This document shows, in pieces, positions 3 to 19,305 of a DNA stretch of 21,128 nucleotides. Position numbers and translations under genes: made by a program. Every line of letters starts with the position of its first letter. Position 1 is the first letter of the stretch. Source of the DNA: a virus; the IMG/VR virus record IMGVR_UViG_3300025646_000458, positions 1 to 21,128 of that record, one strand, 5' to 3'. Under the pieces are notes generated by a model. The model did no database searches, was not told where the DNA came from, and saw only the letters and a program-made list of their open reading frames with translations.

Positions 3-3000
3 ACCAGTGAGGGGTGGGCCGACCATACGGACAACGCCCCACTTTATTCTGCCTACGAGCCACACGACCGCAGTCTCTTCTTCCACGTCACCAGAATGGG
101 CGTGAGCATGACGCACCGCTACGACGTTGACGAATTGAACTACAGTGGGTACGAGGAAACTACTGTCCAAGTCACCTCTACACCTGCCGCAAGCGTCTGG
201 GCAGATACGTCAGAGAAAAGTGGGGGTCGCTGGTTCCTGCGCGTCTACGACCCAACTACAGGTAAGGGTGTACTGGCATCTTACACCGGCACCAAGTCTG
301 ATGGATTCACAGGTGTTGTGTTCAGCCCAGACTTTGCCTCCTTTGTCGCTGGCAAGAGTGGGCTCAAGGTCACACCCTCCTACTACATGCCTGCAGGCAG
401 CACGCGCATGTTTGCTTCGCGCCGCCTACGCGACCACAGCGAATACAGCGGTGCGAGCCCGGACATGAAGAAGGTGGACTGGTTCGACGTCTACGACAAC
501 CTACCTGCCTCTACAGGCGCGATGACCAAGCCTTCCGCACCCTATTCCCGCATGACTGCTCCGAAGATGACTCCCATGCCGATTCCGCGCATGGGCCACC
601 ACTACGTCACGCCGACCATGGCCATGCTCCCCGGACATTACGCGCACCCTGCCTATCAGCGCCTGTATGACTTGCACCACGCCTGCAAGAGTTCCAACTA
701 CAGTCCGCTGCACCAGAGCCTGACCGGCTCGCTTGAGAACACCCGCACCAGCGGCTCTGGCGCCACCATCGAGTCACAGGGCTTCGGCCGCGACCCACTC
801 GTCTGGTTCTCGACGCCAACTGCAGCGTTCGGACCCAGTGACATCCACGGCGGTGCCTTCACCCTGCTCACTGAAACCAAGGTCAAGTACGAAGGCTACG
901 GTGTGGCTGCGAGCACTGGCGCTAACGCTGGCGATGTGAACGCTCAAGGTGGGCATACTCTGGTGCTGGAGGCTGCGAACACCTACACGTTGGGCAACCA
1001 CTTCCCTGACCCTCTGGAGGTTGGTGCTTACCAAATCATCATCCAGCCAAACGTGTTCAAGCAGCAACTGCAAGGCTTCCACAAGAACCACAGCGAGGAG
1101 ACCAAGGCTCCCAGTGAGGCTGGCACCAAGGTCACAGAACTGACGGGTCAGCAGGTCAACACCGTCATCGCCATCGAACGGGATGTGAGCACGCGTGGAG
1201 CCGTGGCTCTTATTTTGGCTGAAGCCATTATGGCCGACGTTCGCGGCTGCGAGGTCATTCTGAACGAAGTCATGCTCGACATCGAGCCGGACGCGAACAG
1301 TCAGTTCGCAAACCTGCCCCCGTTGGCCCTGTTCAACCCCATGGGTGTGCAGGAGAGCAGCAGCCCCGCATTCACGCGCCGCAGTCTTCCCTACCGACCG
1401 GGCATGTTCCAGAGTTCCACTCCGGGTCGCACGCTCACCATCCCATGGTGGGGCATTCTGCATAAGGACGGGGCCTCCTCCTCTGGAGCAGAGAAGTTCC
1501 GCCATTTGGAGTGGCACAAGCCAGACAACTACTACGAGTTCTGCCGGGTCGGCTACGGCGCCATCGGTTCTCAGATGACGCTCGCTGGCTACCCGACGAC
1601 TTACCTCGACATCTACGAACCGCACAAGCGCGCTCGCAGCCTCAATCCGAACTGTATTGTTCTGGCAAACGATTCCGGTGCGCAGACCATCACGGTTGAC
1701 GACAACGCCCTGTTCCCAGTGGCGCCTTACTACGGCGAGGTTCTGGAGTACACAAAGGACGGCATTCGCTACACTGCGACCTACACTAACCGGACGGGCA
1801 CGCTCGCCCATGCTACGCTGGGAGCGAGCACGACTTTCGAGGGCGTCGTGGGCAGTGCTGCGTTCTGGACTGGTTTGGTCAACGAGTCAACAGTTCTGCG
1901 ACTGAGCAGGCCCTACGACAACGGACCAAGCGACGAACTGTTCACCAAGTCAGCGACCAGTATCATGACTCGCAACTTACCGCAGTACGCCAACGGCAGC
2001 CGCGACACCAACTCGCTGCACGCTCCAGACGCATTCCTGTGCATGTGGCACCCCAACCTTGGGCGACCCTTCACGTGGTACAGCGACGACGAAAGTCGCG
2101 CATTCTACACCAATGACGGGTCAGCCGATGCGCCTGTGGACAAGAAGCCGTATAACCACGTTCCTGAGCACTTTGAGACCATCCACTACCACGATTTCAA
2201 CTACGTGGCCAGCAAAGGTCCATTCGGCCTTGCTATGAAGTGGGTCGCCCCTCCAGCCAGCAGCCAAGCCCACACAGGCGACATCTACACGGCTGCTGCC
2301 ATTGACGCCGTGGTGGACGGTGCTGGCACGCTCGACCACCAAGGCGGCACCGTTGGGGCGAACAAGTACAACTTCGCAGGCTTCTGGCCCGGCGGTAGCC
2401 GTGGGGCTGGCGGAGTCAGCCGTCTGGAAACCTACGGCCACGCCCTCATCGGCTGGGGCAGCGACACCTACGGCATGGATTGCGAGACTTATCAAGATTC
2501 GACAGGCGTGGCGACGCTGGCCCTGCCGAGCGACCGCAACAGGTGCTTTGGCTACCGTATGGCGGTACGCCAGTTGTTCAACAGGCCACGCTGGTCGCCG
2601 TATGTCCGTGGATGGTTGGAAGTGGCCAACAGCAACGCCATGCTTGGGTACTATCATGGTCCGCTTATCCAGCAAGACTCCAAGACTGGCGGCTGGGACT
2701 ACGTGGGTGCCGACGGTGACGAGGACGACGAGGACTTCGATGCCCTCTACGTGGGCATCCTTGAGCGAATTACGCAGGTGTCCAGCCTCCTCGGTCAAGA
2801 CCAACTTGGAAGGCAAGTTCGCTACAGTGATGGACGGCGCATGACCGGACCGTTCGGCTGTCCGGTCCGCACCTTGCGCAACACGTCGACGACGACGCGT
2901 CTGTTCCCCAACGACGCCAATGGTCAGGGTGTTGAAGAGTTGGCTGAGGCTCACCGCTTCTACATGGTTGACTGGTGGGGCAACACGCGTGGTGAGGACG

Positions 3001-4409
3001 TGCGTCGCTTCCCTGTCCGTGGCTTCGGTCTGCGTCCTTCGTGGGACCCAGAGGACGCATATGCAGACACGAACGTCACGCATCGTCCTGCAGCGCACGG
3101 TCTGTTCGGCGGAGACGGGAACGACCGCTACAGCGGCAGCGATAACAGCGATAACAACGCAGCCACGAACATGGGCACCGTTGACTGGTTCAACCCAGCC
3201 AGCGCTCTGCGAGTGGGTGACCGTGGGGATGGGCGTGGTGTGCGCTGGCCCACTGTCTTCAACGAAAGCCTGCTGATGGACGTCAGCGAAGCCCACGACG
3301 CCACAGGCCTCGTCCTGAGCCACAGCACGTCTGAGCCAGTTTTCGGCAACGGTCTGGTTCGCCCAAGCAACGCTGCACCCCAGCCCGGTGAAATCGAACG
3401 CGGCATCAGCGACCGCGTCGACCTCAACAGCGACGATGGCCTCCTCAAACCCTCAGCACACGTCGCAGAGGGCATCGAGACCGTGACGGCCGACATTCGT
3501 GGCGCTGAGCCAGTGGGCAGGGACGACGTGCGCCTTGGCCTTGATGTCGACACCATCGCCGAACTGAACGACGGCATCAGCCGCGAGTACATCGTCATGT
3601 CCACCGAAGCGGCCAGCCTGCACACCGACCGCGCAGTCGGCCAGCGCACCAACGTGCGTGGCGCTCACAACGTCGGCAGCCGCACGCTGAACGACCTCGA
3701 CATGACCGCACTCGATTGGTCCGACAAGCCGGTGTCCGGCGTGGTCCGACACTCGGATGCGCACGCGATGTGGCCGCTTGGCGGCACCTACGTCATGGAG
3801 TGGAGCAAGCACGCTGGCGTCCTTGACGTCAAAGGCTGGGGCAAGGCAGGTGCCGCTTCTTCCTCCAACCCCTATCAGGATGCAGACCATGACCCGACCA
3901 AGGAGAACGTGAACTACACGGACAGCACCATCCAGTTCATCTACAGACCTGCGCACGGGCTGGACTACCGCCACAGCCAGATGTTCCGACCGTTTGTCGA
4001 CACAACAGGACCTCAGACAGGCTCCAACTTCTTCCGCGCTACTGCCGGCGGCAAGTACGGTCTCTTCACCAGCGACGTTCCCAGCGCACGCACAGGGACG
4101 CCGAGCAACCCACCGTATGCCCCCGTCTACACCGTTGACCCAGACGCACCTACCACGGCGGACAGCAACGGTCCGAAGATTCAGGGCGTCGACGTCACTG
4201 GTTTCGACAAGACTGACGTGCGCTCACCAGTTGCGCGCATGGTGATGTCTGAGAACACGCTGGAGCACTTCCGCGCTGACGCAAGCCGCCGCTCTATTGA
4301 CGACGACGAGGGCGATTACAGCGTGCAGCCGCGCCACAGCCAAACGCTGCATCCGAAGGGTAGCAAGGGCGACACCTCCTTCAACACCGGAGACCATAGC
4401 GGAGAGTGA
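3..4409 (+). CDS. Giant virion (probably tail/baseplate) protein, 5' end outside window
   Basis: The reading frame is open from base 3 to the TGA at 4407-4409, giving at least 1468 codons. The first in-frame ATG (96) has no ribosome binding site and the frame continues upstream of it through Tyr/Phe-rich coding-like sequence, so I treat the gene as cut by the left edge. No enzyme motif, signal peptide or membrane segment is visible. The protein is rich in Asp, Gly, Thr and aromatic residues, as beta-rich virion proteins often are. It has a Met/Pro/His-rich stretch (about residues 153-197 from the ATG at 96), an acidic patch near base 2720 and a polar C-terminal tail. It lies directly before a hub-like protein, an adaptor-like protein and a tail fibre, so a tail or baseplate role is inferred from position only. 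It could also be a large receptor-binding or decoration protein. Long antisense ORFs inside it are shadows. Confidence 0.75.
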   Translation, partial: TSEGWADHTDNAPLYSAYEPHDRSLFFHVTRMGVSMTHRYDVDELNYSGYEETTVQVTSTPAASVWADTSEKSGGRWFLRVYDPTTGKGVLASYTGTKSDGFTGVVFSPDFASFVAGKSGLKVTPSYYMPAGSTRMFASRRLRDHSEYSGASPDMKKVDWFDVYDNLPASTGAMTKPSAPYSRMTAPKMTPMPIPRMGHHYVTPTMAMLPGHYAHPAYQRLYDLHHACKSSNYSPLHQSLTGSLENTRTSGSGATIESQGFGRDPLVWFSTPTAAFGPSDIHGGAFTLLTETKVKYEGYGVAASTGANAGDVNAQGGHTLVLEAANTYTLGNHFPDPLEVGAYQIIIQPNVFKQQLQGFHKNHSEETKAPSEAGTKVTELTGQQVNTVIAIERDVSTRGAVALILAEAIMADVRGCEVILNEVMLDIEPDANSQFANLPPLALFNPMGVQESSSPAFTRRSLPYRPGMFQSSTPGRTLTIPWWGILHKDGASSSGAEKFRHLEWHKPDNYYEFCRVGYGAIGSQMTLAGYPTTYLDIYEPHKRARSLNPNCIVLANDSGAQTITVDDNALFPVAPYYGEVLEYTKDGIRYTATYTNRTGTLAHATLGASTTFEGVVGSAAFWTGLVNESTVLRLSRPYDNGPSDELFTKSATSIMTRNLPQYANGSRDTNSLHAPDAFLCMWHPNLGRPFTWYSDDESRAFYTNDGSADAPVDKKPYNHVPEHFETIHYHDFNYVASKGPFGLAMKWVAPPASSQAHTGDIYTAAAIDAVVDGAGTLDHQGGTVGANKYNFAGFWPGGSRGAGGVSRLETYGHALIGWGSDTYGMDCETYQDSTGVATLALPSDRNRCFGYRMAVRQLFNRPRWSPYVRGWLEVANSNAMLGYYHGPLIQQDSKTGGWDYVGADGDEDDEDFDALYVGILERITQVSSLLGQDQLGRQVRYSDGRRMTGPFGCPVRTLRNTSTTTRLFPNDANGQGVEELAEAHRFYMVDWWGNTRGEDVRRFPVRGFGLRPSWDPEDAYADTNVTHRPAAHGLFGGDGNDRYSGSDNSDNNAATNMGTVDWFNPASALRVGDRGDGRGVRWPTVFNESLLMDVSEAHDATGLVLSHSTSEPVFGNGLVRPSNAAPQPGEIERGISDRVDLNSDDGLLKPSAHVAEGIETVTADIRGAEPVGRDDVRLGLDVDTIAELNDGISREYIVMSTEAASLHTDRAVGQRTNVRGAHNVGSRTLNDLDMTALDWSDKPVSGVVRHSDAHAMWPLGGTYVMEWSKHAGVLDVKGWGKAGAASSSNPYQDADHDPTKENVNYTDSTIQFIYRPAHGLDYRHSQMFRPFVDTTGPQTGSNFFRATAGGKYGLFTSDVPSARTGTPSNPPYAPVYTVDPDAPTTADSNGPKIQGVDVTGFDKTDVRSPVARMVMSENTLEHFRADASRRSIDDDEGDYSVQPRHSQTLHPKGSKGDTSFNTGDHSGE

Positions 4410-4415
4410 GGCACC

Positions 4416-6071
4416 ATGGCACTTGGTAAGAACACCGTGACTGGGCGCGCTGATGCGGCTCAGAACACAGTGATGAAGCGCGTGCGCAAGCCTCGGTTCG
4501 TCGACAACGCAGTGCGCCATGCCGAGTACACCCGCATCAAGGCTGGGTTCGCGGCGCAGTTGCCCACTGCATCTGACTTCGTCCCTACTGCAGAGCGACG
4601 TTACCGCCTCATCGAGGAAGAGGACACGGTTCGCATCCTGCACAACCCTACGGATAGCATGCGCTACGAGGGTGCGCTGTTCTACGACGAGGATAAGGTC
4701 ACGACCTCAACCCCTCTCCCAGCCTTGGCGGTCGGGGCCGAGCATCACGACCAAGCACTCGTCCTGTCGCAGTCTGAGGCGGCCACCAAGGGCACGCGCT
4801 ATCGGCTGGAGAACCTGAAGGGTAGCGGGCTGAACGCCATCGGCTTCACCGACAGAACCATTCGTTTTGCTCAGAAAGTTGGCGTGGGGCTGCGAACTTC
4901 TGACCTCGCAGCCCGCGTGGCGAAAGCCAACACGTCGTCAATCAATGGCGTGCGGGCAAAGCAGCCCAGTGGCACGTTTTTGGCCCGCGACTTCTACGGC
5001 GTCGAGGCGTTCACTGCACTTCGGTACCTGTCCAAGCACGACGGCTACAGCCCTCGCGGCGACCGCTACGGCAACCTCTGCTACTTCCCGCAGTCAAACA
5101 TCGAGCGGGAGTTCTTTGTGGCCGAGAACAGAGTTCTGGGCGGTGAAATCGACGACAGCACCGACAGTGCCCCTAACAGGGTCGTCGTTCGCGGCCGAGC
5201 GCGGGCAAACAACCACAGCAACGTCGTGCAGGTCGACGACTTCGGTCGTCAGGGGGCCGGTGTTCTGGAAGTGCCGGGTGGCATTCATGCACCCACAGCG
5301 ATGACGCGCTCCAGTGCGAAGGCTATCGGACAGCGCATGCTCAAGATGGCAAACAGCGCGACTGGCTCCAAGGTCCTGACCGAGGTTGTGGGTGCGACGC
5401 ATATGCACCCCGGCGACATGGTGTCGTACCAAACGCGCACGGACAACGAGCGATACGTCGTGCTTGGAAGCGACATTGACCTCGATGCGCGCACCAGTAA
5501 TCTGCACGTGAACTCAGTCAGCGTGTCCCTTGAGGACGTTCTGCAGCGGTTTCAGGAGATTGACGTCAGCGGCAACATCGAAGCCAACGAAGAGCGGAAC
5601 AGGCAGTTCGCTGTCGAGGAGTTCTCTACGTCGTTCGGCTTCAAGTTCCGCGTGTCGTGGCAGATTGCCGAGCGCGTAGACATGAACCGTGGCGTAGGGC
5701 TGACGGTCGGGACACACGACCGGAGCGGCATCAATGGTTCACTCCGGCTTCAAAGCACAGGCGTCCTCATGAACAACGGTGGTGGTTATGCGTCGGGCAC
5801 AACGACGTTCACCACGGACGGTGTGGCTGCCGACACCGTGTTCACGTCCGACAACCAAGAGGTGTTCAAGCGCAACGGGAACAAACTTGGCCACATCGAC
5901 GTGGCATCCGTGACGCCTACCTCAGTCGTCATCAAGTCCAGCAGCGTTCACGCCATGGACGACGACGAAGAGTTGTTCGTCTTGTCCGAAGCGCCACTGC
6001 CAGAGGCTGGGAACAACCACCTGCGCATCGGTGCCGTGCACAGTCGCTACATGAACAGCCGGAGGGGATGA
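4416..6071 (+). CDS. Structural protein, possible tail/baseplate hub (551 aa)
   Basis: The ATG at 4416 follows the stop of the giant protein by 6 nt. A GGAG-type ribosome binding site lies in the end of the previous gene at about 4400-4405. The family is not certain. Around residues 290-375 there is a pattern typical of phage tail hub proteins: an alanine-rich helix (AKAIGQRMLKMA), then a strand ending in HPGDMVSY, then YVVLGSDIDLD and a further strand with Val/Ser alternation. In hub proteins this part forms a beta-barrel in which a PGD turn precedes a strand. The remainder is beta-rich with Gly/Thr/Asn stretches. The N-terminus (about 40 residues) is basic. Its place between the giant virion protein and the fibre adaptor fits a baseplate or tail-tip component. 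Hub identity is an inference; that it is a virion protein is more secure. Confidence 0.7.
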   Translation: MALGKNTVTGRADAAQNTVMKRVRKPRFVDNAVRHAEYTRIKAGFAAQLPTASDFVPTAERRYRLIEEEDTVRILHNPTDSMRYEGALFYDEDKVTTSTPLPALAVGAEHHDQALVLSQSEAATKGTRYRLENLKGSGLNAIGFTDRTIRFAQKVGVGLRTSDLAARVAKANTSSINGVRAKQPSGTFLARDFYGVEAFTALRYLSKHDGYSPRGDRYGNLCYFPQSNIEREFFVAENRVLGGEIDDSTDSAPNRVVVRGRARANNHSNVVQVDDFGRQGAGVLEVPGGIHAPTAMTRSSAKAIGQRMLKMANSATGSKVLTEVVGATHMHPGDMVSYQTRTDNERYVVLGSDIDLDARTSNLHVNSVSVSLEDVLQRFQEIDVSGNIEANEERNRQFAVEEFSTSFGFKFRVSWQIAERVDMNRGVGLTVGTHDRSGINGSLRLQSTGVLMNNGGGYASGTTTFTTDGVAADTVFTSDNQEVFKRNGNKLGHIDVASVTPTSVVIKSSSVHAMDDDEELFVLSEAPLPEAGNNHLRIGAVHSRYMNSRRG

Positions 6072-9576: not shown

Positions 9577-9577
9577 T
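9563..9577. terminator. 15-bp palindrome between convergent operons, possible terminator
   Basis: Two 7-bp arms (AGATGTG and CACATCT) surround a single G. As RNA this gives a 6-bp stem with a 3-nt loop. It lies in the 68-bp gap between the two converging operons and its last base is part of the chaperonin stop codon. No T-run follows on either strand, so it is not a classic terminator. It could be a protein-binding site or chance. Confidence 0.3.
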
Positions 9578-11079
9578 CATTCACCTCGCTTTCCGATGAT
9601 GTCGTCGATTCGGAGGATGCTGATGGTCACTTCGCTGGCTGACTGCACAGCCTGTCGCACCAGTTCAAGGGGCTCAAACACTCCAGCCTCAATCATGGAA
9701 CAAGCGCCGCCATTCTCGATGTCTGGCCCAGCATCGCTGTTGCCCTGCATGTGCTCGTTGCGTAGCGTCAGGATGGTGTCCAGCGGGTCGTGGCCAGCGT
9801 TCTCAGCGATGGTGGCAGGGATGCCCTCCAGAGCGTCTGCAAAGGCGTCAATGGCCATCTGCTCACGCCCTCCGGCTTCGGCCGCACGGGCGCGCAGGTG
9901 GAGGGCAGCGCTGAGGTAAGCAGAGCCGCCGCCAGCCACGGTCTTCCCGCTGTTGTGAGCCAAACAAACGACACCCAGAGCATCCTCAAAGCCGCGCTCT
10001 GTCTCGTCGAGCGTCTGACGGGTCGCTCCTCGCAGAACGAGAGTGGTCACCTCGCCTTCGCCTTCAACGACGACGTAGCGCATGTCGCCTATGGTCTCGC
10101 ACTTGATGTGCGCGTCAGAAGCCACCTTCCCACCGTCCTCAACGCTGTGGTACACGGTGGTGCCCAGAAGCCGGGCCAGCGCCGTCATGTCGCTCTCTGG
10201 CACGCGGTGGACCACAGCGATGTTGGCGTTGGCCAGAGCCGCTGCAACGACCTCGTTGACGGTGTCCCTGCAGAACACGGCGCCTCCGTCAGGCATGGTG
10301 TTGATGATGTCCGTAGCCTTCTGAATCCACTCGTCTCGACTGGATTGCTTCCGGTACTGCTGATATTCCTGCGCAGAGGACAGGCTGATTTGCACGTTGT
10401 CGTCCTTCTTCCCGTCGCCAAGGCCCGTGTTGATGAGCAGCACCTTGGGCGCAGGCTCGTCAGGCATGGCCGGGAGCATGAACTCCTTGTGCAGCACCAC
10501 GCCGTGGAAGCAGTACGAGTCGTCCAGCGAGCCACCCGGCTGCGAAAGCACCCGAATGCGGGAGTAGTCGCCGTTGGCGTTCTTGGCCGCAGTCACGCAC
10601 AGTTCGCTGACGTGGTCCATGCTGGACTCAAGCGCCTTTCCTGTGATGGAAGTCTGTGCAATCTTACTCAGAGGGGCTTCGACGGTCAATGAGTTTAGGT
10701 GCTCGACGGCCCAAGCGGCTGCTTTGCGATAGCCACGGCAAATGATGTTCGCGTGGAGGCCCTTGCCGAACAGCAGTTCGCTGTTGCCCAGCAATTCACC
10801 GGCAAGCACAACGGTACTGGTTGTGCCGTCGTAGCAGACGTCTTCCTGCGTGTTGGCAGCCTCGACGACCATCTTGGCCGCAGGGTGAGTGATGTCCAAC
10901 TGCTGCAGAATGGTCGCACCGTCGTTGGTGACGATGACGTTCCCGCCTGCGTCGACCATCATCTTGTCCATTCCCATCGGCCCCAGTGTCGTTTTCACCG
11001 TCGACACGGCCCGCTTGGCCGCTCGGATGTTGTGCACTACAGCGCTCGTGTTCCCCTCAGTCTCGTTCATGTGTATCAC
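9577..11079 (-). CDS. Group II chaperonin (thermosome-like subunit), 500 aa
   Basis: ATP-driven protein-folding subunit of the archaeal thermosome / eukaryotic CCT family; these assemble into double rings in the cytoplasm. Visible family blocks: TLGPMGMDKMMVD (residues 31-43), NDGATIL (52-58), DGTTS (84-88), ERGFEDAL (361-368, with the expected catalytic Asp at 366), VAGGG (381-385) and ILRIDDII near the end. A polar helical segment near 225-260 matches the built-in lid of group II chaperonins. Deviations: the Gly before DGTTS is Tyr83, the usual Glu after the GGG loop is Tyr388, and the protein is somewhat shorter than the usual roughly 540 aa, with a short N-terminus and no Gly/Met-rich tail. 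The start is GTG at 11079, overlapping the exonuclease stop (GTGA), with GAGGT 6 nt upstream. ATG at codon 4 is the alternative. It is the last gene of the replication operon. A role in folding viral proteins or joining host rings is inferred. Confidence 0.93.
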   Translation of the reverse strand: MIHMNETEGNTSAVVHNIRAAKRAVSTVKTTLGPMGMDKMMVDAGGNVIVTNDGATILQQLDITHPAAKMVVEAANTQEDVCYDGTTSTVVLAGELLGNSELLFGKGLHANIICRGYRKAAAWAVEHLNSLTVEAPLSKIAQTSITGKALESSMDHVSELCVTAAKNANGDYSRIRVLSQPGGSLDDSYCFHGVVLHKEFMLPAMPDEPAPKVLLINTGLGDGKKDDNVQISLSSAQEYQQYRKQSSRDEWIQKATDIINTMPDGGAVFCRDTVNEVVAAALANANIAVVHRVPESDMTALARLLGTTVYHSVEDGGKVASDAHIKCETIGDMRYVVVEGEGEVTTLVLRGATRQTLDETERGFEDALGVVCLAHNSGKTVAGGGSAYLSAALHLRARAAEAGGREQMAIDAFADALEGIPATIAENAGHDPLDTILTLRNEHMQGNSDAGPDIENGGACSMIEAGVFEPLELVRQAVQSASEVTISILRIDDIIGKRGE

Positions 11080-11827: not shown

Positions 11828-13249
11828 TCACGCACCGCCCTTCCTGAACTCAGGTCGCAGTCTGATGTAGACTCGCACAGATTCTCGCGTATCAACGAAC
11901 ATTTCTGCCCCGTAATCGTTGAACTTCGTGTTGATGGACCCGTGGCTGCTGTAGTTGGCCATTTTCCCGAAGGCTTCCATGACTTCGCTCTTCTTGGCCC
12001 AGCCCTGACCACGGGTGTCGTCGAAATCGAAGAGTTCGCACTGCTCAAACGACTTACGCCAGAAGTCCTGCATCTTCTTCTTCTCACTGGCACCTGCGCC
12101 AATGTTGACTTCAGACTCAAGCCACTGAATGAGGTTCCCGTAGAGGTCGTAGAGGATTTCGCGCGCCATGTCGACGTGGTCACCGCGCACGACCCACACA
12201 CCCTCAATCATGGCCATGTGGTGAGCGAGGATGTTGGTGTAGTTCTGGAGTCCCATGACGAAAGAAGAGCAGATACCTTGCTTGTCCGGTCCGAGCGGCT
12301 CAACGATGCTGTAATACTCATCAATCGCCATGTAGAGGGCTGGCCTGTATGAGTCGTCGATGGTGAACGTCCGCTTCATCAGACCCATGACAACCTGCTC
12401 TTGGTCGTCTTCCGACATCTCATCCCACTCCATTGGCGGGATGTCGGCGAGGTCGAGGATGCGCCGCTTAAGTCGCTTCTGCAAGTCAGTGAAGAACTGT
12501 ACGACTTCGTCGAATGGCATCTCCGGCTCTGAGTCATCGTGTACTGCGTCGGCCAACTCGTAGTTGATTTGGCGCTTCATGTCCAACGTCCAGTGCCGCC
12601 AGTACGTGAGGACACGCTGAAAAATACCCTTGTCGAGCACGTGTTCTTTGATGCCTTTTGGCGGGAAGGTGGTAATCCAAAGAGATACCTCAGATTTGAC
12701 GCTGAACGTGTCGCGAGCCATGTGCTTCGTGAGTTCGTTGCGTCCAGTACCCGCTGAGTTTAGGGCGGACTGGAGAAAGAGTGTGGTGTTTTCATTGTGC
12801 TGCCCTGTCTTGAGGATGATGCTACCTTCATCGAAGTTGAGCCCCTTGCGCCCGGCAAGAATGCCGGGGCGCACAATCATGTCTGGGTTTCGCTGGTCTT
12901 CCGAATCCGGGTCAGGGACCAGCGTGCCCACGAGAGCGGCGTCGTTGCCAGAGTTGTAGTCCATGCTGTTCAGCCCGGCCTCCAGCAGCACTCTCTCGAT
13001 GACCTCGTAGGCTGCCGACTTGCCTGTCCGGGTGTCCTGAATCCAAAACATGCTGACACGAGGGTCGAGGTTGCTCCCACCTACAGGGATGCGGACATAT
13101 GGGATGGCCGCTTGACCAAGGATGAAGAAGAAGGACAGCAGGCCCGGAATCTCATTGTTTCTGCTGAACATGTTGAAGTGCTCAAGGTAGCCCCTCAGTG
13201 TAGGGTATTTCTTGGTGCATTCATAGTTCGCTGCTCGATGTTCCATCAT
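11828..13249 (-). CDS. P-loop ATPase, probable replicative helicase-like protein (473 aa)
   Basis: Walker A is DTRTGKSA (K77, S78) and Walker B is LNFDEGS (D140, E141). A sensor-1-like WITTFPP lies near 191-197 and a conserved-looking arginine is in GIFQRVL (R212). This order is like AAA+ helicases of the MCM type or the DUF3987 helicase-like family found with viral primases. The C-terminal part (about 330-470) is helical and ends in what looks like a winged-helix segment near GWAKKSEVMEAFGKM. No zinc finger or N-terminal MCM OB domain is seen. Operon position next to primase and nucleases supports a replication role. It starts at ATG 13249, 9 nt after GGAGG, inside the end of the ERCC4 gene (29-nt overlap). 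A motor for recombination rather than the main fork helicase cannot be excluded. Confidence 0.7.
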   Translation of the reverse strand: MMEHRAANYECTKKYPTLRGYLEHFNMFSRNNEIPGLLSFFFILGQAAIPYVRIPVGGSNLDPRVSMFWIQDTRTGKSAAYEVIERVLLEAGLNSMDYNSGNDAALVGTLVPDPDSEDQRNPDMIVRPGILAGRKGLNFDEGSIILKTGQHNENTTLFLQSALNSAGTGRNELTKHMARDTFSVKSEVSLWITTFPPKGIKEHVLDKGIFQRVLTYWRHWTLDMKRQINYELADAVHDDSEPEMPFDEVVQFFTDLQKRLKRRILDLADIPPMEWDEMSEDDQEQVVMGLMKRTFTIDDSYRPALYMAIDEYYSIVEPLGPDKQGICSSFVMGLQNYTNILAHHMAMIEGVWVVRGDHVDMAREILYDLYGNLIQWLESEVNIGAGASEKKKMQDFWRKSFEQCELFDFDDTRGQGWAKKSEVMEAFGKMANYSSHGSINTKFNDYGAEMFVDTRESVRVYIRLRPEFRKGGA

Positions 13250-13964
13250 GGCTGTACCCTCCTCTCCCGTAGGTCTTTGTCACGCGAACCGGCTCCTCAG
13301 AAGTCAACACTTCAAGGAGTCGCTGACGCAACTTCGGACCGAGGCCTCTCACCTGTTTGAGGCTTTCGGGATAGAGCATTTCTTCAATGGAGCCGCATCG
13401 CTCCAGTGTATTTTGAACCAGTTCCGGTCCAAATCCGGGGACTGCAAGCAACATGTCTGCGCGTACGTCATTGGTGCTGGTTCGTGTGACAGCCTTCGCG
13501 CCATGAGTGCTTGCCGGTTTCTGCATTTTGCTGTGCAGTTTAGCGATGAACATGGCCGCCTCGGAGTAGTCCTTGGCGCGGTAGATGTGACAGTCAAAGT
13601 CTGCCGTGATGCGGGCAAAAATGCCCAGAATCATGTCCTGTGTCTTAGCGTAGGTCACAGGTCGACCTTGCTTCTTGGACATAGCCACGTGCTTAGCGAT
13701 GTCCCCGTGCACGACGAGGATGACGCGCTCGCAGTTGGCGTCAAGGTTCTCGATTTGGCGCATGAGGTGACCGCTGAACGTCGACTGGATGAGGTCAGAC
13801 AGACTCTTACACTCGATGTGCGCATTACCTGCCTTATAGTCCCCCATGCCCTGCAGGTGGGTCTTTTCAACAGCGAAGCCCTCACGCTCAGCCGCACGAA
13901 TGACGGCATCGTGGAGGGGGCCTCGCTCGTTTGAGTCGATGTAGAGAGGGACCTTTATCGCCAT
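13221..13964 (-). CDS. ERCC4/XPF-family nuclease with helix-hairpin-helix domain (247 aa)
   Basis: Structure-specific DNA endonuclease of the XPF/Mus81/Hef type, which cuts flaps, forks or branched recombination intermediates. The nuclease part shows YIDSNERGP (D10, E13, R14), MGDYKAG (residues 40-46), IECKSLSDLI (E51, K53, D57) and a following SGHLMRQ segment. The usual ERK signature is ECK here, with Cys52 in place of Arg. Two helix-hairpin-helix motifs follow, VPGFGPELV (near 175-183) and VRGLGPKLR (near 205-213), as in archaeal XPF. There is no helicase domain, so it is the short, nuclease-only form, which in archaea often works with the sliding clamp; a clamp is encoded upstream in this operon. 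It starts at ATG 13964 with GGAGG 8 nt upstream and overlaps the preceding gene by 10 nt. The tail after residue 222 is Gly/Ser-rich. Confidence 0.9.
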   Translation of the reverse strand: MAIKVPLYIDSNERGPLHDAVIRAAEREGFAVEKTHLQGMGDYKAGNAHIECKSLSDLIQSTFSGHLMRQIENLDANCERVILVVHGDIAKHVAMSKKQGRPVTYAKTQDMILGIFARITADFDCHIYRAKDYSEAAMFIAKLHSKMQKPASTHGAKAVTRTSTNDVRADMLLAVPGFGPELVQNTLERCGSIEEMLYPESLKQVRGLGPKLRQRLLEVLTSEEPVRVTKTYGRGGYSHDGTSSSEL

Positions 13965-14191
13965 ACACCACGCCTCCTTTCGTAGCGTTCAGCAAAGTAG
14001 ACGCAGCGTTTGCAGGCACGATTATCGCCCTCTTCGTCTACTTCCCAATGTGAGTCGCCAACGATGACCATGCCACAGAAGGAAGCGTCGCCCTCCAGCA
14101 CAGAACCATCGCTACGCCTGAGAATCAGGTGGTGGGGCTTGGCGCCTTTTCGACGACCAACCCAGTGAATCTTAGCGTACTTCTCACTCAT
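13955..14191 (-). CDS. Small C/H/C/C mini-protein, putative zinc-binding (78 aa)
   Basis: Unrecognised small protein. The frame is open further upstream, but I choose the ATG at 14191 because GGAGG lies 9 nt before it and the upstream part overlaps the primase gene in another frame. The N-terminus is basic (KIHWVGRRKGAKPHH). Then come C39, H48 and C60-x2-C63, spaced as a possible zinc finger, and an Arg-rich end (YERRRGVWR). The basic ends plus the metal-type ligands suggest nucleic-acid or protein binding. It overlaps the primase stop by 8 nt and the ERCC4 nuclease start by 10 nt. Confidence 0.65.
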   Translation of the reverse strand: MSEKYAKIHWVGRRKGAKPHHLILRRSDGSVLEGDASFCGMVIVGDSHWEVDEEGDNRACKRCVYFAERYERRRGVWR

Positions 14192-15296
14192 CCACAACCG
14201 CCTCCTCCATCGCACCAGTCTTGTCCCAGTATCGACACTTTCCAAGGCACATACCTTTCTTGTGAAGCATCGAGCACGTTTGAGGGTATTCCGTACCCAC
14301 GATGGTGCCGACTTGGTATCGGGTCGTGGCTTCATCAAAATCTGCCCAGTCGAGGCCGCTGATGAATTGCACGATTGTTTCGCCGTGTTCTGCCAACTTT
14401 GAGCGGTCGATTCGCTCAACCGGCATGAAGTTGCGTAGTCGTTTAGAGAGGTACTTGACCAACTGGACGCGAGCGTCGTGGCTTGGGTTGCTGCCGACTC
14501 GACAGGCGGCCGAGTTTAGGCAAGGGAGAATGATAATGCCGTCCATAGACGCTGTTGGCAGGTCGATGGGCTTTGAGTTGGGGTCAAATACGCGAGAGCG
14601 TTGCTTGGTGCGCACGACGTCCAGCGACACCCCCTTGGTCCCGTAAGCGAACATGCCAGACTTGGACTCCAGTGCCTCGACCATGATGTGGTCCAGCCCT
14701 GCTTCCAAGTCGGAGGTTTTCAGCGGTATGGACCAGAGTCCGCGTTTGGAGTTGTACGAGTTCGGGAGCCGAATCATACCGCTCGTGTCGAACGGCACTG
14801 CAGGGTCTGAGCAAAACAGGTTCATCTCGTGAATCCACTTGCTGATAAGTGACATACCTGCTTCCTTGACATCAGACAGATGGTTGCCGTCAGCGGGCAT
14901 GTAGGGTTTGTCCAGCATGACCCAGACGTGGAAGCCACCACCGCTGTACCAGACGGCGTGTGCGATGTCTTCCTTGAGCAGGTGCTTATGCAGCGTGAGG
15001 GTCTGACGCAGGGCCTTCTCAGGGTTGACGTCTGGCCTGTCCCGCTGCCTGAAGTCCTTGGGGTCAAAGTCCATCACGAAGTGACGGACGATGGGCGTGG
15101 TCAGGTCGACGCGCCTATTGTGTGGCTGCTGCAGGGCTCGGTAGCCGTAGACGGTCATGTAGGCGTTGGACACTCCGTCCTTGCCAGACCAGTAGCGCTC
15201 CAACTCCTCATCTGTACGAACCAGTTTTCGGAATCCCCTACCCTTCTCATTCCCAAGTTCCATTACTTCTCGTGGGAAATCGAAGACCAGACGCAC
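14184..15296 (-). CDS. Archaeo-eukaryotic primase with PriL-like Fe-S C-terminus (370 aa)
   Basis: DNA primase of the AEP superfamily, which makes primers for PolB. Catalytic motif I is VMDFDPKD (D76, D78), motif II is SGGGFHVW (118-125, H123) and motif III is around D170 with MIRLPNSYNSKRG (R176). After residue 255 the protein looks like the C-terminal domain of the large primase subunit PriL: LPCL (C259), HDARVQLVKYL, DWADFDEATTRYQVG, TCSML (C341), GMC (C350) and KCRYW (C354). Four cysteines in this order match a [4Fe-4S] site. This implies that catalytic and PriL-like parts are joined in one chain. An extra Cys265 is present. The GTG at 15296 starts 1 nt after the stop of the preceding gene; ATG at codon 12 is the alternative, with a weaker site. 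No separate PriL gene is in the window. Confidence 0.87.
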   Translation of the reverse strand: MRLVFDFPREVMELGNEKGRGFRKLVRTDEELERYWSGKDGVSNAYMTVYGYRALQQPHNRRVDLTTPIVRHFVMDFDPKDFRQRDRPDVNPEKALRQTLTLHKHLLKEDIAHAVWYSGGGFHVWVMLDKPYMPADGNHLSDVKEAGMSLISKWIHEMNLFCSDPAVPFDTSGMIRLPNSYNSKRGLWSIPLKTSDLEAGLDHIMVEALESKSGMFAYGTKGVSLDVVRTKQRSRVFDPNSKPIDLPTASMDGIIILPCLNSAACRVGSNPSHDARVQLVKYLSKRLRNFMPVERIDRSKLAEHGETIVQFISGLDWADFDEATTRYQVGTIVGTEYPQTCSMLHKKGMCLGKCRYWDKTGAMEEAVVDE

Positions 15297-15570: not shown

Positions 15571-16599
15571 TCACTCTTCCTCCTGCATCTTGGCGATGTA
15601 TTCCTTTGGGTCGTCGCTGCCCTCCCACGAAGGACAAATCGACTTAAAGTCGCACCAAGCGCATTTACCTTGGCTTGGCTTAGGGGGGAAATCGTCAGTC
15701 AGGTATGCCGTGATGAGAGCCTCCTTGAGCCGCTGGACTCTTCCTTCAGCGTAGCGCGACACGCTTTGCTTCTGTCCCTCTTTGTTCGCATTGATGGGTT
15801 CGTAGAAAATACGGTTGACGCTGCGTTGCTCTAATCCGTACTTGTTATAGGCATCGAGCCCTTCCACCTCACCGGATGGGTAGACCCAGCCCCAGTGCGT
15901 GACGTTCTGGTGCTCGTGGTCAGCCACCTTGAGCAAGTGCTTGTAGAACGCCATCTCGATGCGCATGCTGTCGACCTTGAACGACTGGTCTTCCCACGTC
16001 ACGGTGCCAGTCGTGTCTGTCTTCGCTGTCTGCAACCACTTGCCGGTTTTCAGTTCCATCAAGGCCACGCCGTTTTCAGTAGCGAACGCACGGTCAATGC
16101 TCCCAGCCCAATGGATGGGGATGGTCAGCACCTCGCCGTTGAACTCAAACTCTTCCTCGGTGAAGGCGTGAACCTCGGCTTCGTTAATGATGGGTAGGTA
16201 GTCGTCTTTCCCACCTGCAAGCAATCGCTCCAAATCCCACTTTAGACGGGTCTCGATGGACTTCTCCTCGCCCAACTCGTAGGTTTCTTCAGGCAGAATA
16301 CTCAGTGCCAGTGCCAGCGCCTCGTCACGCTTATCCCGCTGCATGAGGGTGAGCAAGTCGTCGAGGTAAGGGTACACGTTGTTGAAGTAGTACTCGACGG
16401 CGTTGTGCACGTTCGTCCCTTTCCGCATGGCGTCGGTTTCAGGGGTCGGAAGGCCATGCACGCGCTTGTACTCGTACTGCTTGGGGCAGAAGTCGAAGTC
16501 GCTCGTCAGACTCGACTTGGTCACGCGCAGGTGCTTTGGGTGACCCGGCTTCCAAGCGTATGTTGACCGTGAATATGCTGTCCAATCCCTGTCGCTCAT
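15571..16599 (-). CDS. Cas4/RecB-like PD-(D/E)XK nuclease with Fe-S cysteines (342 aa)
   Basis: DNA exonuclease of the Cas4/AddB branch of the RecB-type nucleases. In order: C38 in FCPKQYEY, H65 in GTNVHNAVEYYF, D169 in GSIDRAF, E182-x-K184 in LMELKTGKW, a helix with the QxxxY-like position (MRIEMAFYKHLL, about 212-223) and the C-terminal trio C313-x2-C316-x5-C322 in GKCAWCDFKSICPSW. One Cys near the N-terminus plus three at the C-terminus is the Cas4 [4Fe-4S] arrangement. At 342 aa it is longer than CRISPR Cas4 (about 200 aa) and there is no CRISPR array or Cas1/Cas2 nearby, so its role is probably viral DNA end processing or recombination. It starts at ATG 16599, overlapping the preceding stop (ATGA), with GGAGG 7 nt upstream. 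Confidence 0.9.
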   Translation of the reverse strand: MSDRDWTAYSRSTYAWKPGHPKHLRVTKSSLTSDFDFCPKQYEYKRVHGLPTPETDAMRKGTNVHNAVEYYFNNVYPYLDDLLTLMQRDKRDEALALALSILPEETYELGEEKSIETRLKWDLERLLAGGKDDYLPIINEAEVHAFTEEEFEFNGEVLTIPIHWAGSIDRAFATENGVALMELKTGKWLQTAKTDTTGTVTWEDQSFKVDSMRIEMAFYKHLLKVADHEHQNVTHWGWVYPSGEVEGLDAYNKYGLEQRSVNRIFYEPINANKEGQKQSVSRYAEGRVQRLKEALITAYLTDDFPPKPSQGKCAWCDFKSICPSWEGSDDPKEYIAKMQEEE

Positions 16600-16775
16600 T
16601 CGTATTCCTCCAGTTTTGTTTGACGTCCGCCGACGATGTCGACAAACTCGGAAAGTGTGGTCTGGCGCGACCCCTTTTCATCATAGCGACCGCAGGTCGG
16701 GCAGGCGTCGAATCGAGACAGTGGAGCCGCAGGCTCGGTGTCCATTACCCGCTTCCAGAAAGCCCATTTACTCAC
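16596..16775 (-). CDS. CxxC mini-protein (59 aa)
   Basis: I read this directly from the gap between the MazG-like and Cas4-like genes. GTG at 16775 gives 59 codons to TGA at 16598-16596. The GTG overlaps the stop of the MazG-like gene (GTGA), AGGAGG lies 7 nt upstream, and its own stop overlaps the nuclease start (ATGA). It has a single pair, C25-x2-C28 in DACPTCGRYDE, set in an aromatic- and charge-rich chain (N-terminal MSKWAFWKR). One pair is only half a zinc ribbon, so it may dimerise round a metal, complete a site in a partner, or be redox active. No family recognised. Confidence 0.65.
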   Translation of the reverse strand: MSKWAFWKRVMDTEPAAPLSRFDACPTCGRYDEKGSRQTTLSEFVDIVGGRQTKLEEYE

Positions 16776-16969
16776 GCTTTTTCCTCCTTTTCAAGGTCAC
16801 GGATGAGTCTTTCAAGGTAGACAGCGAGGTCCATAGCCTCCTCTTGAGCATGGCGCAGCCATTCGATGTGGGTGAGGTCCTTGCGCTCCATCGTCTTGCC
16901 ATATTTGTGCCATCCGAGGTCAGCACGCTGGCGAATCTTACGGACGACTTCTTCTTCGATTTTGCTCAT
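16772..16969 (-). CDS. MazG-like minimal protein (65 aa)
   Basis: All-helical protein with the pattern LGWHKYGKTM, then WLRHAQEEAMDLAVYLERL. The EExxD part (E43, E44, D47) resembles the metal-binding helix of the MazG/all-alpha NTP pyrophosphatase superfamily. Similar 60-100 aa phage proteins with a KYG segment and a HAxEExxDxxxYL helix are common. If active it would hydrolyse a nucleoside triphosphate, perhaps to tune the nucleotide pool, but at 65 aa it has only one ExxD helix pair and would need to oligomerise. The ATG at 16969 overlaps the PolB stop (ATGA) with GAGGTG just upstream. The C-terminus is Lys/Glu-rich. Confidence 0.7.
   Translation of the reverse strand: MSKIEEEVVRKIRQRADLGWHKYGKTMERKDLTHIEWLRHAQEEAMDLAVYLERLIRDLEKEEKA
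16782..16787 (-). promoter_or_regulatory. Ribosome binding site fixing the GTG start of the 59-aa gene
   Basis: GGAGG read on the - strand, at 16787-16783, ends 7 nt before GTG 16775. It lies inside the 3' end of the MazG-like gene and supports this short gene as real. Confidence 0.5.
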
Positions 16970-19305
16970 TCAATCACCTCAAAGTAGTTCTTGGGGCGGG
17001 CGGCGCCAGAAGCGGCTGCCAAGTCCCAGTCGAGTGCCATGAAAATGGGCTTCAGTTTAGCCTTGAGCAACTTGTCCACCATCAAATCGACGTCCAGTTC
17101 GTAGCCGTCTAAATCAGATTCGTCGACGAAAGCCATGACGTCCGTGCGGTTGTCGCGAACGTAGACCCAGTCCACGCTCTGGTCCTTGAAGAACTTCGGC
17201 TCGACGGTTCTGTTATAGTAGAGGGCAGCCTTGATGCCTCCTCCAACCTTAGAATACTGTTCTGGGTGCTTCTGCAGTCGGGTGGTCGAAGCCACTTCCT
17301 TGAGGTCGAAATCGCTGCTCAGAATGCGCTTGGCCAGTGGACGGACCATAGAGATGACTTGCTCTTCGCTCGCTCCTCGACAAATGGCGGTGAGAACGTC
17401 GTTCTCAAGCGTCATTGAGATAGGAGCGAGTGTGCTGATTTTACCCCAGCGTGCGCTCTTGACCTTACCTTCGTCTTCAGGTGGCCACGAACAGATGCCG
17501 TAGTAGAGGTTCTTCCCACCGACAATCCAGTAGGGCATGTAGGCCTCAAACTCTACGATGAGGTCCTTGGCGTTGAGGCGCTGTTGCACGGTTGTCGTGA
17601 GGTGCTTTGCCAGTGCCCCTGCTTCGTCGTAGGGGACCTGTACGAATGCCGAATCGGTGTGCCCGTAGAGGGGTGCGTAGCCCTGCGCCTTTGACTCCTC
17701 AAGGAGGAAACGAATGGCTTGTCGACCGACCGAAGTAATGGCGCTGGCGATGTCGAAATCACACCAACCCCAGTGAGCGCTGGCCGTCATCCCGTAGAAA
17801 GAAGCCATCACACGCTTGACCGCCAACTGCATGGTGTTCCATCCGCTGCGCTCGCGCTCGCTTTCCGATTCGCGCATCTTACGCTTATACAGGTCACGTA
17901 GGTCGAACATCTCGGTGACGATGCGGGGAAGAAGTGCGTCGACGCCCTGCCTCCAGCAAGTGCCGTCCGGCAGTCGATGCACGTTGTCCTCATTCGCTTG
18001 GTCGGGGTGCACCTGCGTTTCCCAAGACAGGTTGTGGCTAAGGATGATGCTGGGGTACAGACCCTTGTAGTCAACGCAGGCCACGCCCTCGTATCGTCCG
18101 GGCCGAGGAGGGGGGATGAACGCGCCCTCGTACTCCTGTTTCTCCTGCTGAGAACGGGTGGGTGCCTTCCAATCGGTCCTGCGACTGAGTAGGCCGCGCG
18201 CAAACCGCGTGACGTTGTGGCAGGAAGGGAACGTGACGCCGCACAGTCGCTGCAGAGAGAAGAAGAAGTCGAGGACGTGGTTGTCTTCGTCGATGCGCTT
18301 CAACAGCACCGTGTCCTGCATACAGTAGTCCACGTAGTCGTCGAAGCGCTCCGTCCACCCAGTGAACACGTCCATGTCGAACTTGCCGCCGAGGCCACAG
18401 GCTTCCGCCAGCGTGTCTAATTTGAGGTTCTTCAGTTGGGGTTTGCCGCTGTCTTTCCAGACGCGCTCAAATCCGCTGCCACTGTTGAGCGGGGAGGCCG
18501 TATCGAAACACAGTCGACCACGGATTGGTTGGTCCGTGTAGTCGTAACCTTTCTTGGTGCCAAGCACCCGGCCAAGCGGGCTGAGGCGCCTGAACTGCTT
18601 TAGCCGCTCCGTCAAGTGCGGTAGGTCAGCCCACATCATGGAGTGGGCCACAAGCACGTCGGGGTTGCACTCCTCCAAATAAGCGAGGAAGGCCCTGTGC
18701 ATGTCCGATTCTGAGCCGTACAGATGGCGTTCGTAGGTGTAGTCGACTTTCTCACCGCGCACCTCGTAATCGACCTCACGGACCTCGATGTGGTGGTCCA
18801 TGTCGTAGAGGCCGTTGGGGTTATCTTTCTTCCAGCAGAAGGCAACTCGCCTTCGATTGAAACTGTCCACCACGGCCATGACCGTGGTCTCCTTGGTCTT
18901 CGGGTCCCACTCCAAGTCGAAGTGCCAGACGCGAGGCGTCCAGTCAGGTATTGTCTGGTAGGTGTCCATGAGGTAGCGGTCTGCGAGGCTGAGGTCAGCC
19001 TCCCACGTCTTCCAAAAGCGAGCAGCCATGCTCCTGATGTCGCTCTCACGGTAGGCGTAGACCTTGATGAGTGGCTCGTTGTCGCGCAGCCCTACGGCTG
19101 TGTCGTCGTAGTCGACCTCGGAGCCGTAAAAGGAGTCGAGCACGTTGTCGATGATGCGTTTTGGGGTGTTGGCTGAAATCCAGAAGTAGGGCCTGAAGTC
19201 GGTCACGGTGTCTTCGATGAGGTTTCCGTCCTTGTCGCGCCACCTCAGGTAAAGGTGGTCGGGACCCTCAGGGTCCGGTCGGAACGCATCGACAATCACC
19301 GTCAT
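16966..19305 (-). CDS. polB: Family B DNA polymerase with 3'-5' exonuclease domain (779 aa)
   Basis: Replicative DNA polymerase. The exonuclease domain has D130/E132 in HFDLEW, D227 in the HSMMWADLPHL segment (the usual Asn is Ser222) and Y327/D331 in YCMQD, so proofreading is probably active. Polymerase motif A is VDYKGLYPSII (D412). Motif B is KRVMASFYG (K497, Y504), with Ala501 where most families have Asn. Motif C is YGHTDS, with His549 in place of the first Asp and catalytic D551 kept. KNLYYG near 599-604 matches the KxY motif. There is no protein-priming insertion or intein that I can see, so it is a primer-using enzyme, consistent with the primase and clamp genes. The 779-aa length is normal for archaeal and viral PolB. 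Its start at 19305 overlaps the zinc-ribbon stop (ATGA). Confidence 0.96.
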   Translation of the reverse strand: MTVIVDAFRPDPEGPDHLYLRWRDKDGNLIEDTVTDFRPYFWISANTPKRIIDNVLDSFYGSEVDYDDTAVGLRDNEPLIKVYAYRESDIRSMAARFWKTWEADLSLADRYLMDTYQTIPDWTPRVWHFDLEWDPKTKETTVMAVVDSFNRRRVAFCWKKDNPNGLYDMDHHIEVREVDYEVRGEKVDYTYERHLYGSESDMHRAFLAYLEECNPDVLVAHSMMWADLPHLTERLKQFRRLSPLGRVLGTKKGYDYTDQPIRGRLCFDTASPLNSGSGFERVWKDSGKPQLKNLKLDTLAEACGLGGKFDMDVFTGWTERFDDYVDYCMQDTVLLKRIDEDNHVLDFFFSLQRLCGVTFPSCHNVTRFARGLLSRRTDWKAPTRSQQEKQEYEGAFIPPPRPGRYEGVACVDYKGLYPSIILSHNLSWETQVHPDQANEDNVHRLPDGTCWRQGVDALLPRIVTEMFDLRDLYKRKMRESESERERSGWNTMQLAVKRVMASFYGMTASAHWGWCDFDIASAITSVGRQAIRFLLEESKAQGYAPLYGHTDSAFVQVPYDEAGALAKHLTTTVQQRLNAKDLIVEFEAYMPYWIVGGKNLYYGICSWPPEDEGKVKSARWGKISTLAPISMTLENDVLTAICRGASEEQVISMVRPLAKRILSSDFDLKEVASTTRLQKHPEQYSKVGGGIKAALYYNRTVEPKFFKDQSVDWVYVRDNRTDVMAFVDESDLDGYELDVDLMVDKLLKAKLKPIFMALDWDLAAASGAARPKNYFEVIE

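What the first reader, a model, noticed from the sequence alone, without database searches (positions are those of the whole stretch)
14184..15296. Single-chain primase joining a PriS-like catalytic core to a PriL-like Fe-S domain
The AEP motifs are followed by C259, C341, C350 and C354 in a context (DWADFDEATTRYQVG, then TCSML, GMC and KCRYW) that looks like the PriL C-terminal [4Fe-4S] domain. In cellular archaea these are separate subunits. A fused minimal form would be useful for studying how the Fe-S domain guides primer start.
Basis: partly seen in the sequence, partly recalled or inferred. Interest (0 to 1): 0.5.

Follow-up and report, generated by a model that had tools for sequence, protein, structure and literature searches.

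The report
Single-chain viral DNA primase
A marine archaeal virus carries a compact one-piece DNA primase in which the primer-making part and a probable iron-sulfur part, usually two separate proteins in archaea, are joined; it is real, but the same design is already known in a few archaea and in related salt-loving viruses.

Summary
The gene (14187-15296, minus strand, 370 aa) has an archaeo-eukaryotic primase (PriS-like) core, residues ~1-225, and a PriL-CTD-like domain, ~250-362. In 141 distinct family sequences, C259 is kept in 141 and C341, C350 and C354 in 140 each (one is truncated); every other cysteine varies. The domain alone matches archaeal PriL models (1.2e-5) and PF04104 (5.7e-4), below curated cut-offs; 0 of 10 cysteine-fixed shuffles hit PF04104. 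The core aligns with PriS and LigD structures at Z ~10. PDB fold searches with the C-terminal model recovered no PriL; a viral library gave an archaeal-virus 'primase large subunit' second. The gene lies in a conserved replication module of magrovirus-like contigs. The kind is known: Nanoarchaeum equitans has PriS fused to PriL-CTD (PMC2614490), cluster-2 DPANN archaea have fused primases (PMC7414124), and halovirus homologues (hhalign E 1.7e-8) are annotated in GenBank as small-subunit plus large-subunit regions. Bound cluster and activity are inferred.

The parts
14187..15296 (-). single-chain primase, 370 aa (GTG start; stop codon at 14184-14186)
   Evidence: family member found in 254 of 257 loci held, never two in one locus
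14622..15296 (-). AEP (PriS-like) catalytic core, about residues 1-225
   Evidence: structural alignment over model residues ~2-226: LigD 2fao_A Z 10.7, human PriS 4bpw_A 10.4, Sulfolobus PriS 1zt2_A 10.2, Prim-PolC 6sa0_A 10.1; PriS profile NF001641 listed for 37 of 37 members, window E 0.035, best 1.2e-5
15063..15071 (-). motif I, D76-x-D78
   Evidence: 141 of 141
14928..14945 (-). motif II, S118-GGGF-H123
   Evidence: G119-G121 in all 142 rows; H123 in 141 of 141
14757..14789 (-). motif III, D170 followed by R176-x-PNS (residues 170-180)
   Evidence: D170 in 139 of 141 (N in L088 and L090); R176 in all 142 rows; aligned with the Sulfolobus PriS motif in a weak hit, E 0.8
14211..14549 (-). 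PriL-CTD-like domain, about residues 250-362
   Evidence: model pLDDT 90.6
14520..14522 (-). C259, first putative [4Fe-4S] ligand
   Evidence: 141 of 141
14274..14276 (-). C341, second putative ligand
   Evidence: 140 of 141
14247..14249 (-). C350, third putative ligand
   Evidence: 140 of 141
14235..14237 (-). C354, fourth putative ligand
   Evidence: 140 of 141
13221..13964 (-). downstream ERCC4/Hef-type nuclease
   Evidence: PF02732 8.2e-11, Hef nuclease 1.5e-20; homologue in 161 of 161 loci compared
15571..16599 (-). upstream PD-(D/E)XK (RecB/Cas4-like) nuclease
   Evidence: PF12705 4.7e-15; homologue in 160 of 161 loci compared
16966..19305 (-). family B DNA polymerase, presumed primer user
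   Evidence: PF00136 1.6e-32; homologue in 146 of 161 loci compared

Best explanation
It is the replicative primase of a magrovirus-like (Poseidoniales-associated) tailed virus. One chain holds a PriS-type AEP catalytic core and, after a short linker, a reduced PriL C-terminal domain. Most likely mechanism: motifs I and III (D76, D78, D170) bind the two metals and H123 helps bind the nucleotide in the AEP site, while the C-terminal domain, folded round a [4Fe-4S] cluster held by C259/C341/C350/C354, binds the template and the 5' end of the nascent primer, so that initiation and primer length are set in cis. The primer is then taken over by the virus's own family B polymerase and clamp from the same gene cluster. 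Shown here: both domains by sequence profile, conservation of motifs and four cysteines, the predicted AEP fold, the conserved cluster. Inferred: primase activity, the metal cluster, template and primer contacts, hand-over to PolB.
For: AEP fold by structure comparison; PriS and PriL profiles in the same chain in the right order; DxD and H123 in 141 of 141 and D170 in 139 of 141; only the four proposed ligands conserved among all cysteines, with near-fixed spacing; confident helical model of the C-terminal domain, whose second viral-library hit is an annotated archaeal-virus primase large subunit, probability 0.97, TM 0.47, E 0.23; homology over residues 22-353 to the halovirus HVTV-1 gp100 protein, whose four cysteines align; same-strand cluster with PolB, clamp-like, RecB/Cas4-like and ERCC4 nuclease genes; never two family members in one locus, though loci cover only part of each genome.
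Against: Foldseek and VIA-align against the PDB did not list any PriL-CTD for the C-terminal model; the nearest primase row was PriX (5of3_C), Z 4.5, among unrelated rows of equal score. Profile scores are below curated cut-offs. Unrelated models also match some members: RecX 15 of 80, best 5.7e-5, and MADS6 10 of 80, best 0.0012; DUF4348 9 of 80, best 0.023. A PDB sequence search with the C-terminal profile found no PriL. PF04104 over whole records missed this gene itself. Domain orientation is uncertain (full model pLDDT 74.2, pTM 0.53, residues 1-20 and 38-64 under 50). Two relatives have N at position 170.
Confidence: 0.87

Rival explanations
1. The four cysteines hold a structural zinc ion, and the domain is a redox-inert template-binding module.
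For: Four invariant cysteines fit either metal; AEP domains of viruses and plasmids are often fused to Zn-binding domains (PMC5862659, passages seen).
Against: The domain is related to archaeal PriL, whose C-terminal domain contains a 4Fe-4S cluster (PMC5862659); the first cysteine is more than 80 residues from the other three with long helices between, unlike a compact zinc finger.
Confidence: 0.08
2. It is a DNA-synthesising PrimPol used in repair or recombination, not the replicative primase.
For: Neighbours include ERCC4-type and RecB-like nucleases; AEP structures of repair enzymes (LigD, Prim-PolC) score as high as PriS.
Against: No locus held a second family member; it lies in a cluster with PolB and a clamp-like protein and has a PriL-type domain; ICTV profiles list an archaeal-type primase within the magrovirus replisome.
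Confidence: 0.1
3. The C-terminal domain is an unrelated helical domain that only happens to carry four cysteines.
For: No PriL-CTD among PDB fold matches; a few unrelated models, RecX above all (15 of 80, best 5.7e-5), match some members too.
Against: Three archaeal PriL models are listed for 75, 72 and 71 of 80 members at E <= 10, best 1.4e-7; 0 of 10 cysteine-fixed shuffles hit PF04104; viral-library hit named primase large subunit; depositors of two halovirus homologues name the same two parts.
Confidence: 0.04

Closest known systems
Halovirus (Druskaviridae) primase: HVTV-1 gp100, HVTV-2 gp100, HCTV-1 gp95, HCTV-5 gp96, HCTV-16 gp99
   Same: Nearly full-length homologue (HVTV-1: hhalign probability 95.4, E 1.7e-8, 305 columns, residues 22-353); same two-domain order; the four cysteines align in all five; the HVTV-2 and HCTV-16 entries are annotated 'eukaryotic/archaeal primase small subunit (N-terminal region) and large subunit (C-terminal region)', the other three as hypothetical protein.
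   Different: 19-20% identity to the window protein, which finds none of them by tblastn itself (a distant family member does, E 5e-5); shorter C-terminal helical part; eight rather than three residues between the last two cysteines in HVTV-1.
Nanoarchaeum equitans NEQ395 single-subunit primase
   Different: Cellular; no sequence was compared here.
[quoted passage not shown]
   Same: One-gene PriS-PriL primase (PMC7414124, passages seen).
   Different: Cellular; presence of the PriL N-terminal domain and phylogenetic relation not tested here.
PolpTN2 of Thermococcus plasmid pTN2
   Same: Plasmid-encoded AEP core followed by a PriL-like domain with four predicted Fe-S cysteines; purified protein light brown (PMC3973330, passages seen). 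The cores show weak profile similarity (probability 20.5, E 0.0011 over 112 columns).
   Different: Over 920 aa, with PriCT-1 and winged-helix parts and motif II His replaced by Gln (PMC5862659, passages); no significant C-terminal profile similarity to this family; no PF04104 hit at E <= 10.
Heterodimeric archaeal PriS/PriL
   Same: Both domain types.
   Different: Two chains; NCBIfam model lengths of 323-324 and 348-360 aa against 370 aa in all here; no room for a PriL N-terminal domain.

Membership tests
Archaeo-eukaryotic primase (AEP) superfamily | motif I DxD, motif II SxH-type, motif III hD | tested here: met
   D76, D78 and H123 in 141 of 141, D170 in 139 of 141
Archaeo-eukaryotic primase (AEP) superfamily | AEP (RRM-like) fold | tested here: met
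   PriS 1zt2_A Z 10.2, 175 aligned, rmsd 4.0; LigD 2fao_A Z 10.7, 186 aligned, rmsd 3.6; parts of the model are of low confidence
PriL C-terminal Fe-S domain | sequence profile of PriL | tested here: met
   NF002589 1.2e-5, PF04104 5.7e-4 for the domain alone; below the curated cut-offs
PriL C-terminal Fe-S domain | four conserved cysteines, one N-terminal and three clustered | tested here: met
PriL C-terminal Fe-S domain | PriL-CTD fold | tested here: inconclusive
   no PriL among PDB rows; PriX 5of3_C Z 4.5, 79 aligned, rmsd 3.4; viral-library PriL hit probability 0.97, E 0.23
PriL C-terminal Fe-S domain | bound [4Fe-4S] cluster | not testable with these tools
   needs purified protein
Complete PriL | N-terminal PriS-binding domain | tested here: not met
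   aligned AEP core reaches about residue 226-234 and the CTD starts near 250; the best PriL stretches of the whole protein lie at 258-357 and 306-356
Halovirus fused primase (Druskaviridae) | near full-length homology with the four cysteines in register | tested here: met
   (hhalign alignment ends at residue 353, so C354 is placed by MAFFT only)
NEQ395-type fused primase | PriS fused to PriL-CTD | tested here: met
   architecture only, from profiles against the description in PMC2614490
NEQ395-type fused primase | common descent of the fusion | not tested
   no NEQ395 or DPANN sequence was at hand
PolpTN2 family | motif II His replaced and PriL-like region of the PolpTN2 type | tested here: not met
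   H123 present in 141 of 141; hhalign of the CTD with PolpTN2 E 0.16, probability 0.4; core only weakly similar

The most novel reading that the evidence does not exclude
Magroviruses and haloviruses inherited this minimal PriS plus PriL-CTD primase from a common tailed-virus ancestor, independently of the fusion in Nanoarchaeum and other DPANN archaea. If so, archaeal viruses reached the same reduced design separately, showing that the PriL N-terminal domain is dispensable when the Fe-S domain is tethered in cis.
Probability: 0.35. Interest if true: 0.5.

Novelty: new member of a known kind. Interest (0 to 1): 0.27.

Why it matters
At 370 aa it is a compact single-chain primase of a widespread virus group: the two broadest scans of IMG/VR confirmed 356 and 349 stretches that encode relatives (80 kept each). 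Homologues in haloviruses with named Haloarcula hosts should make it genetically tractable. It offers a simple test of what the PriL Fe-S domain does without a heterodimer. The architecture itself is already on record.

Tried and rejected
Single-sequence PDB search with the whole protein and profile searches gave no PriL; weak hits were to AEP proteins or unrelated chains. Pfam search of whole virus records for a separate PriL (0 of 15 virus records at E <= 0.1) is weak evidence, because the same search also missed the fused protein's own PriL part. PF01896 hit 7 of those 15 records, once each; by my reckoning from the ranges each hit lies inside the fused primase gene.

PDB fold searches with the C-terminal model listed no PriL-CTD; this absence is told here and not used as evidence of a different fold. 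PolpTN2 was considered as the parent family and rejected. I first took the wrong pTN2 gene (1785-4622) for PolpTN2 and corrected this. tblastn of the window protein in the phage collection gave nothing at E <= 0.1, and of its C-terminal domain at E <= 10 only an ANMV-1 protein at E 4 and two records of one phage at E 7. Cellular archaeal PriS/PriL or NEQ395 sequences could not be obtained, so no tree was built. The shuffle control was run against Pfam only, not NCBIfam; one of its ten shuffles hit another family at E 0.21.

Literature: nine searches. No passage I read states that magrovirus primases are fused: the ICTV profiles (PMC12999244, PMC10768690; whole text) say only archaeal-like or archaeo-eukaryotic primase; passages of PMC7544198 do not discuss it; the word primase does not occur in the main text of PMC10160649, PMC5628999 or PMC8651126. 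Passages of PMC6563490 and PMC12770985 did not bear on it. Listed but not opened: PMC11705971, PMC12934983, PMC13108676 among others. Philosof 2017 (PMC5434244), Prabhu 2025 (PMC11706807), Schneider 2023 on the N. equitans primase (PMC10250227; only its title seen, in the reference list of PMC12770985), Iyer 2005 and Kazlauskas 2016 are not held, so I cannot say it is unpublished.

Rows dropped: of 141 distinct family sequences, 79 were kept with the window for the C-terminal alignment A4 (over 93% redundancy, the truncated L109 and loci fetched by other routes left out). A1 used 24 and A2 37 chosen sequences. The context count used 161 of the 258 loci then held, many of the rest being re-fetches of the same contigs; loci were chosen for holding the primase and many are cut at contig ends. 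One member counted, L230, is partial at its start.

Full report
What is there. The window is a 21,128-base virus record. In 39 relatives the frame starts at the same place with ATG, GTG or TTG. All quoted motifs and cysteine numbers are correct.

The N-terminal half. D76-x-D78, S118-GGGF-H123 and D170 are the AEP catalytic motifs (motif names recalled). Among 141 distinct family sequences, the window included (40-100% identity to it), D76, D78 and H123 are invariant; D170 is N in two. A model of the full chain built from 37 sequences (pLDDT 74.2, pTM 0.53) aligns over about residues 2-226 with LigD polymerase (Z 10.7), human PriS (10.4), Sulfolobus PriS (10.2) and Prim-PolC (10.1). A PriS model was listed for 37 of 37 members, best 1.2e-5, with the window protein itself at only 0.035; PF01896 for 11 of 24, best 0.0061.

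The C-terminal part. Residues 258-357 gave PF04104 at E 0.0055 in the whole protein, 22 of 24 members within the E <= 10 listing, best 3.5e-4, and 5.7e-4 for the domain alone (43 of 80 members, best 3.1e-6). Three NCBIfam PriL models were listed for 75, 72 and 71 of 80 members at E <= 10, best 1.4e-7; the window gave 1.2e-5, 3.6e-3 and 9.7e-4, at the C-terminal end of the PriL models. These scores are below the curated cut-offs, and some unrelated models match members too: RecX 15 of 80 (best 5.7e-5), MADS6 10 (0.0012), DUF4348 9 (0.023). Ten shuffles with cysteines held in place gave no PF04104 hit. C259 is present in 141 of 141, C341, C350 and C354 in 140 of 141, spacing C-x81/85/86-C-x8-C-x3-C. 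No other cysteine is conserved: in the 142 rows, which hold the window twice, C162 is kept in 128, C265 in 76, and cysteine at position 79 occurs in 68. That single-out of exactly four cysteines is the best evidence for a metal site. The domain model is confident (pLDDT 90.6, pTM 0.84), with five helices. Against the PDB it found no PriL; PriX, a PriL-related subunit according to PMC5862659 (passages), appeared at Z 4.5 among unrelated rows, so this is inconclusive. Against predicted viral structures the top hit was an unnamed 332-aa protein (E 7.9e-6, TM 0.72) and the second a 327-aa 'Archaeal/eukaryotic-type DNA primase large subunit' of an uncultured archaeal virus (probability 0.97, E 0.23, TM 0.47); the other 48 rows shown of 178 have probability 0.51 or less.

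Missing part. The core ends near 225-234 and the C-terminal domain begins near 250, so there is no PriL N-terminal domain, which in cellular enzymes joins PriL to PriS (established knowledge, recalled). A linker replaces it.

Surroundings. In 161 loci compared, the homologues found all lie on the same strand as the primase: ERCC4 nuclease in 161, RecB/Cas4-like nuclease 160, the 473-aa ATPase-like protein 155, exonuclease-like 151, chaperonin 151, PolB 146, clamp-like 129, Sak4-like 122. The clamp and Sak4 names rest on weak PHROGs hits (0.019 and 0.012). Relatives lie on contigs up to 115.6 kb. ICTV profiles give magroviruses 90-110 kb genomes with PolB, archaeal-type primase, in Apasviridae a PD-(D/E)XK nuclease and in Aoguangviridae a chaperonin (PMC12999244, PMC10768690; read whole). 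Assignment of the window to Magrovirales rests on this gene content; neither magrovirus reference record tried was held.

What is known. N. [quoted passage not shown] Undinarchaeota and cluster-2 DPANN have fused primases (PMC7414124, passages); PolpTN2 is a plasmid fusion (PMC3973330, passages) but a different family. tblastn with a distant family member (L121) found halovirus genes over both domains (E 5e-5), and hhalign of the family with HVTV-1 gp100 aligned residues 22-353 with 20-362 (probability 95.4, E 1.7e-8). In two of the halovirus records the gene is annotated as small-subunit N-terminal and large-subunit C-terminal regions. Both ICTV profiles name Druskaviridae as relatives of magroviruses. 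So the fusion is already on record in a related group; the window adds a member.

Mechanism. By homology: two-metal nucleotidyl transfer in the AEP site, with the Fe-S domain tethered in cis holding template and primer 5' end, then hand-over to the viral PolB. None of this was measured. Whether the viral and DPANN fusions arose separately could not be tested without cellular sequences.

Noticed in passing
L121 (NZMJ01000138.1, 'Maricaulis sp.' MAG): The only match in the genome collection encodes a protein 100% identical to those of virus loci L178 and L242, so this contig is probably a virus contaminant in the bacterial bin; the DNA was not compared.
   Followed up: partly
L263:3926-4351 (ANMV-1 virus, AJP62017.1): A 141-aa hypothetical protein of the ANMV-1 virus matches archaeal PriL models weakly (0.0059), so this virus may carry a stand-alone piece of a PriL-CTD-like domain.
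   Followed up: partly
9577-11079 (-): TCP-1/cpn60-family chaperonin gene (3e-129) downstream of the replication genes, with a homologue in 151 of 161 loci.
   Followed up: partly
L088 and L090, primase gene: Two relatives have Asn in place of the motif III Asp (position 170); it is unclear whether they are active.
   Followed up: no
L109:1259-2134: The primase frame is cut short before the last three cysteines, although the tblastn match runs on to query residue 364; probably a frameshift in the assembly or a broken gene. Not mended.
   Followed up: no
16772-16969 (-): 65-aa protein between PolB and the RecB-like nuclease, with a homologue in 114 of 161 loci and matching several PHROGs of unknown function (1.9e-14).
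   Followed up: no
11828-13249 (-): 473-aa protein with a P-loop-like stretch (TRTGKS), with a homologue in 155 of 161 loci, without a Pfam or PDB sequence match; a candidate replicative helicase or ATPase.
   Followed up: partly
13955-14191 (-): Small frame (start chosen by me inside a longer frame) overlapping the end of the primase gene, with a CxxC pair; homologue found in only 6 of 161 loci.
   Followed up: no
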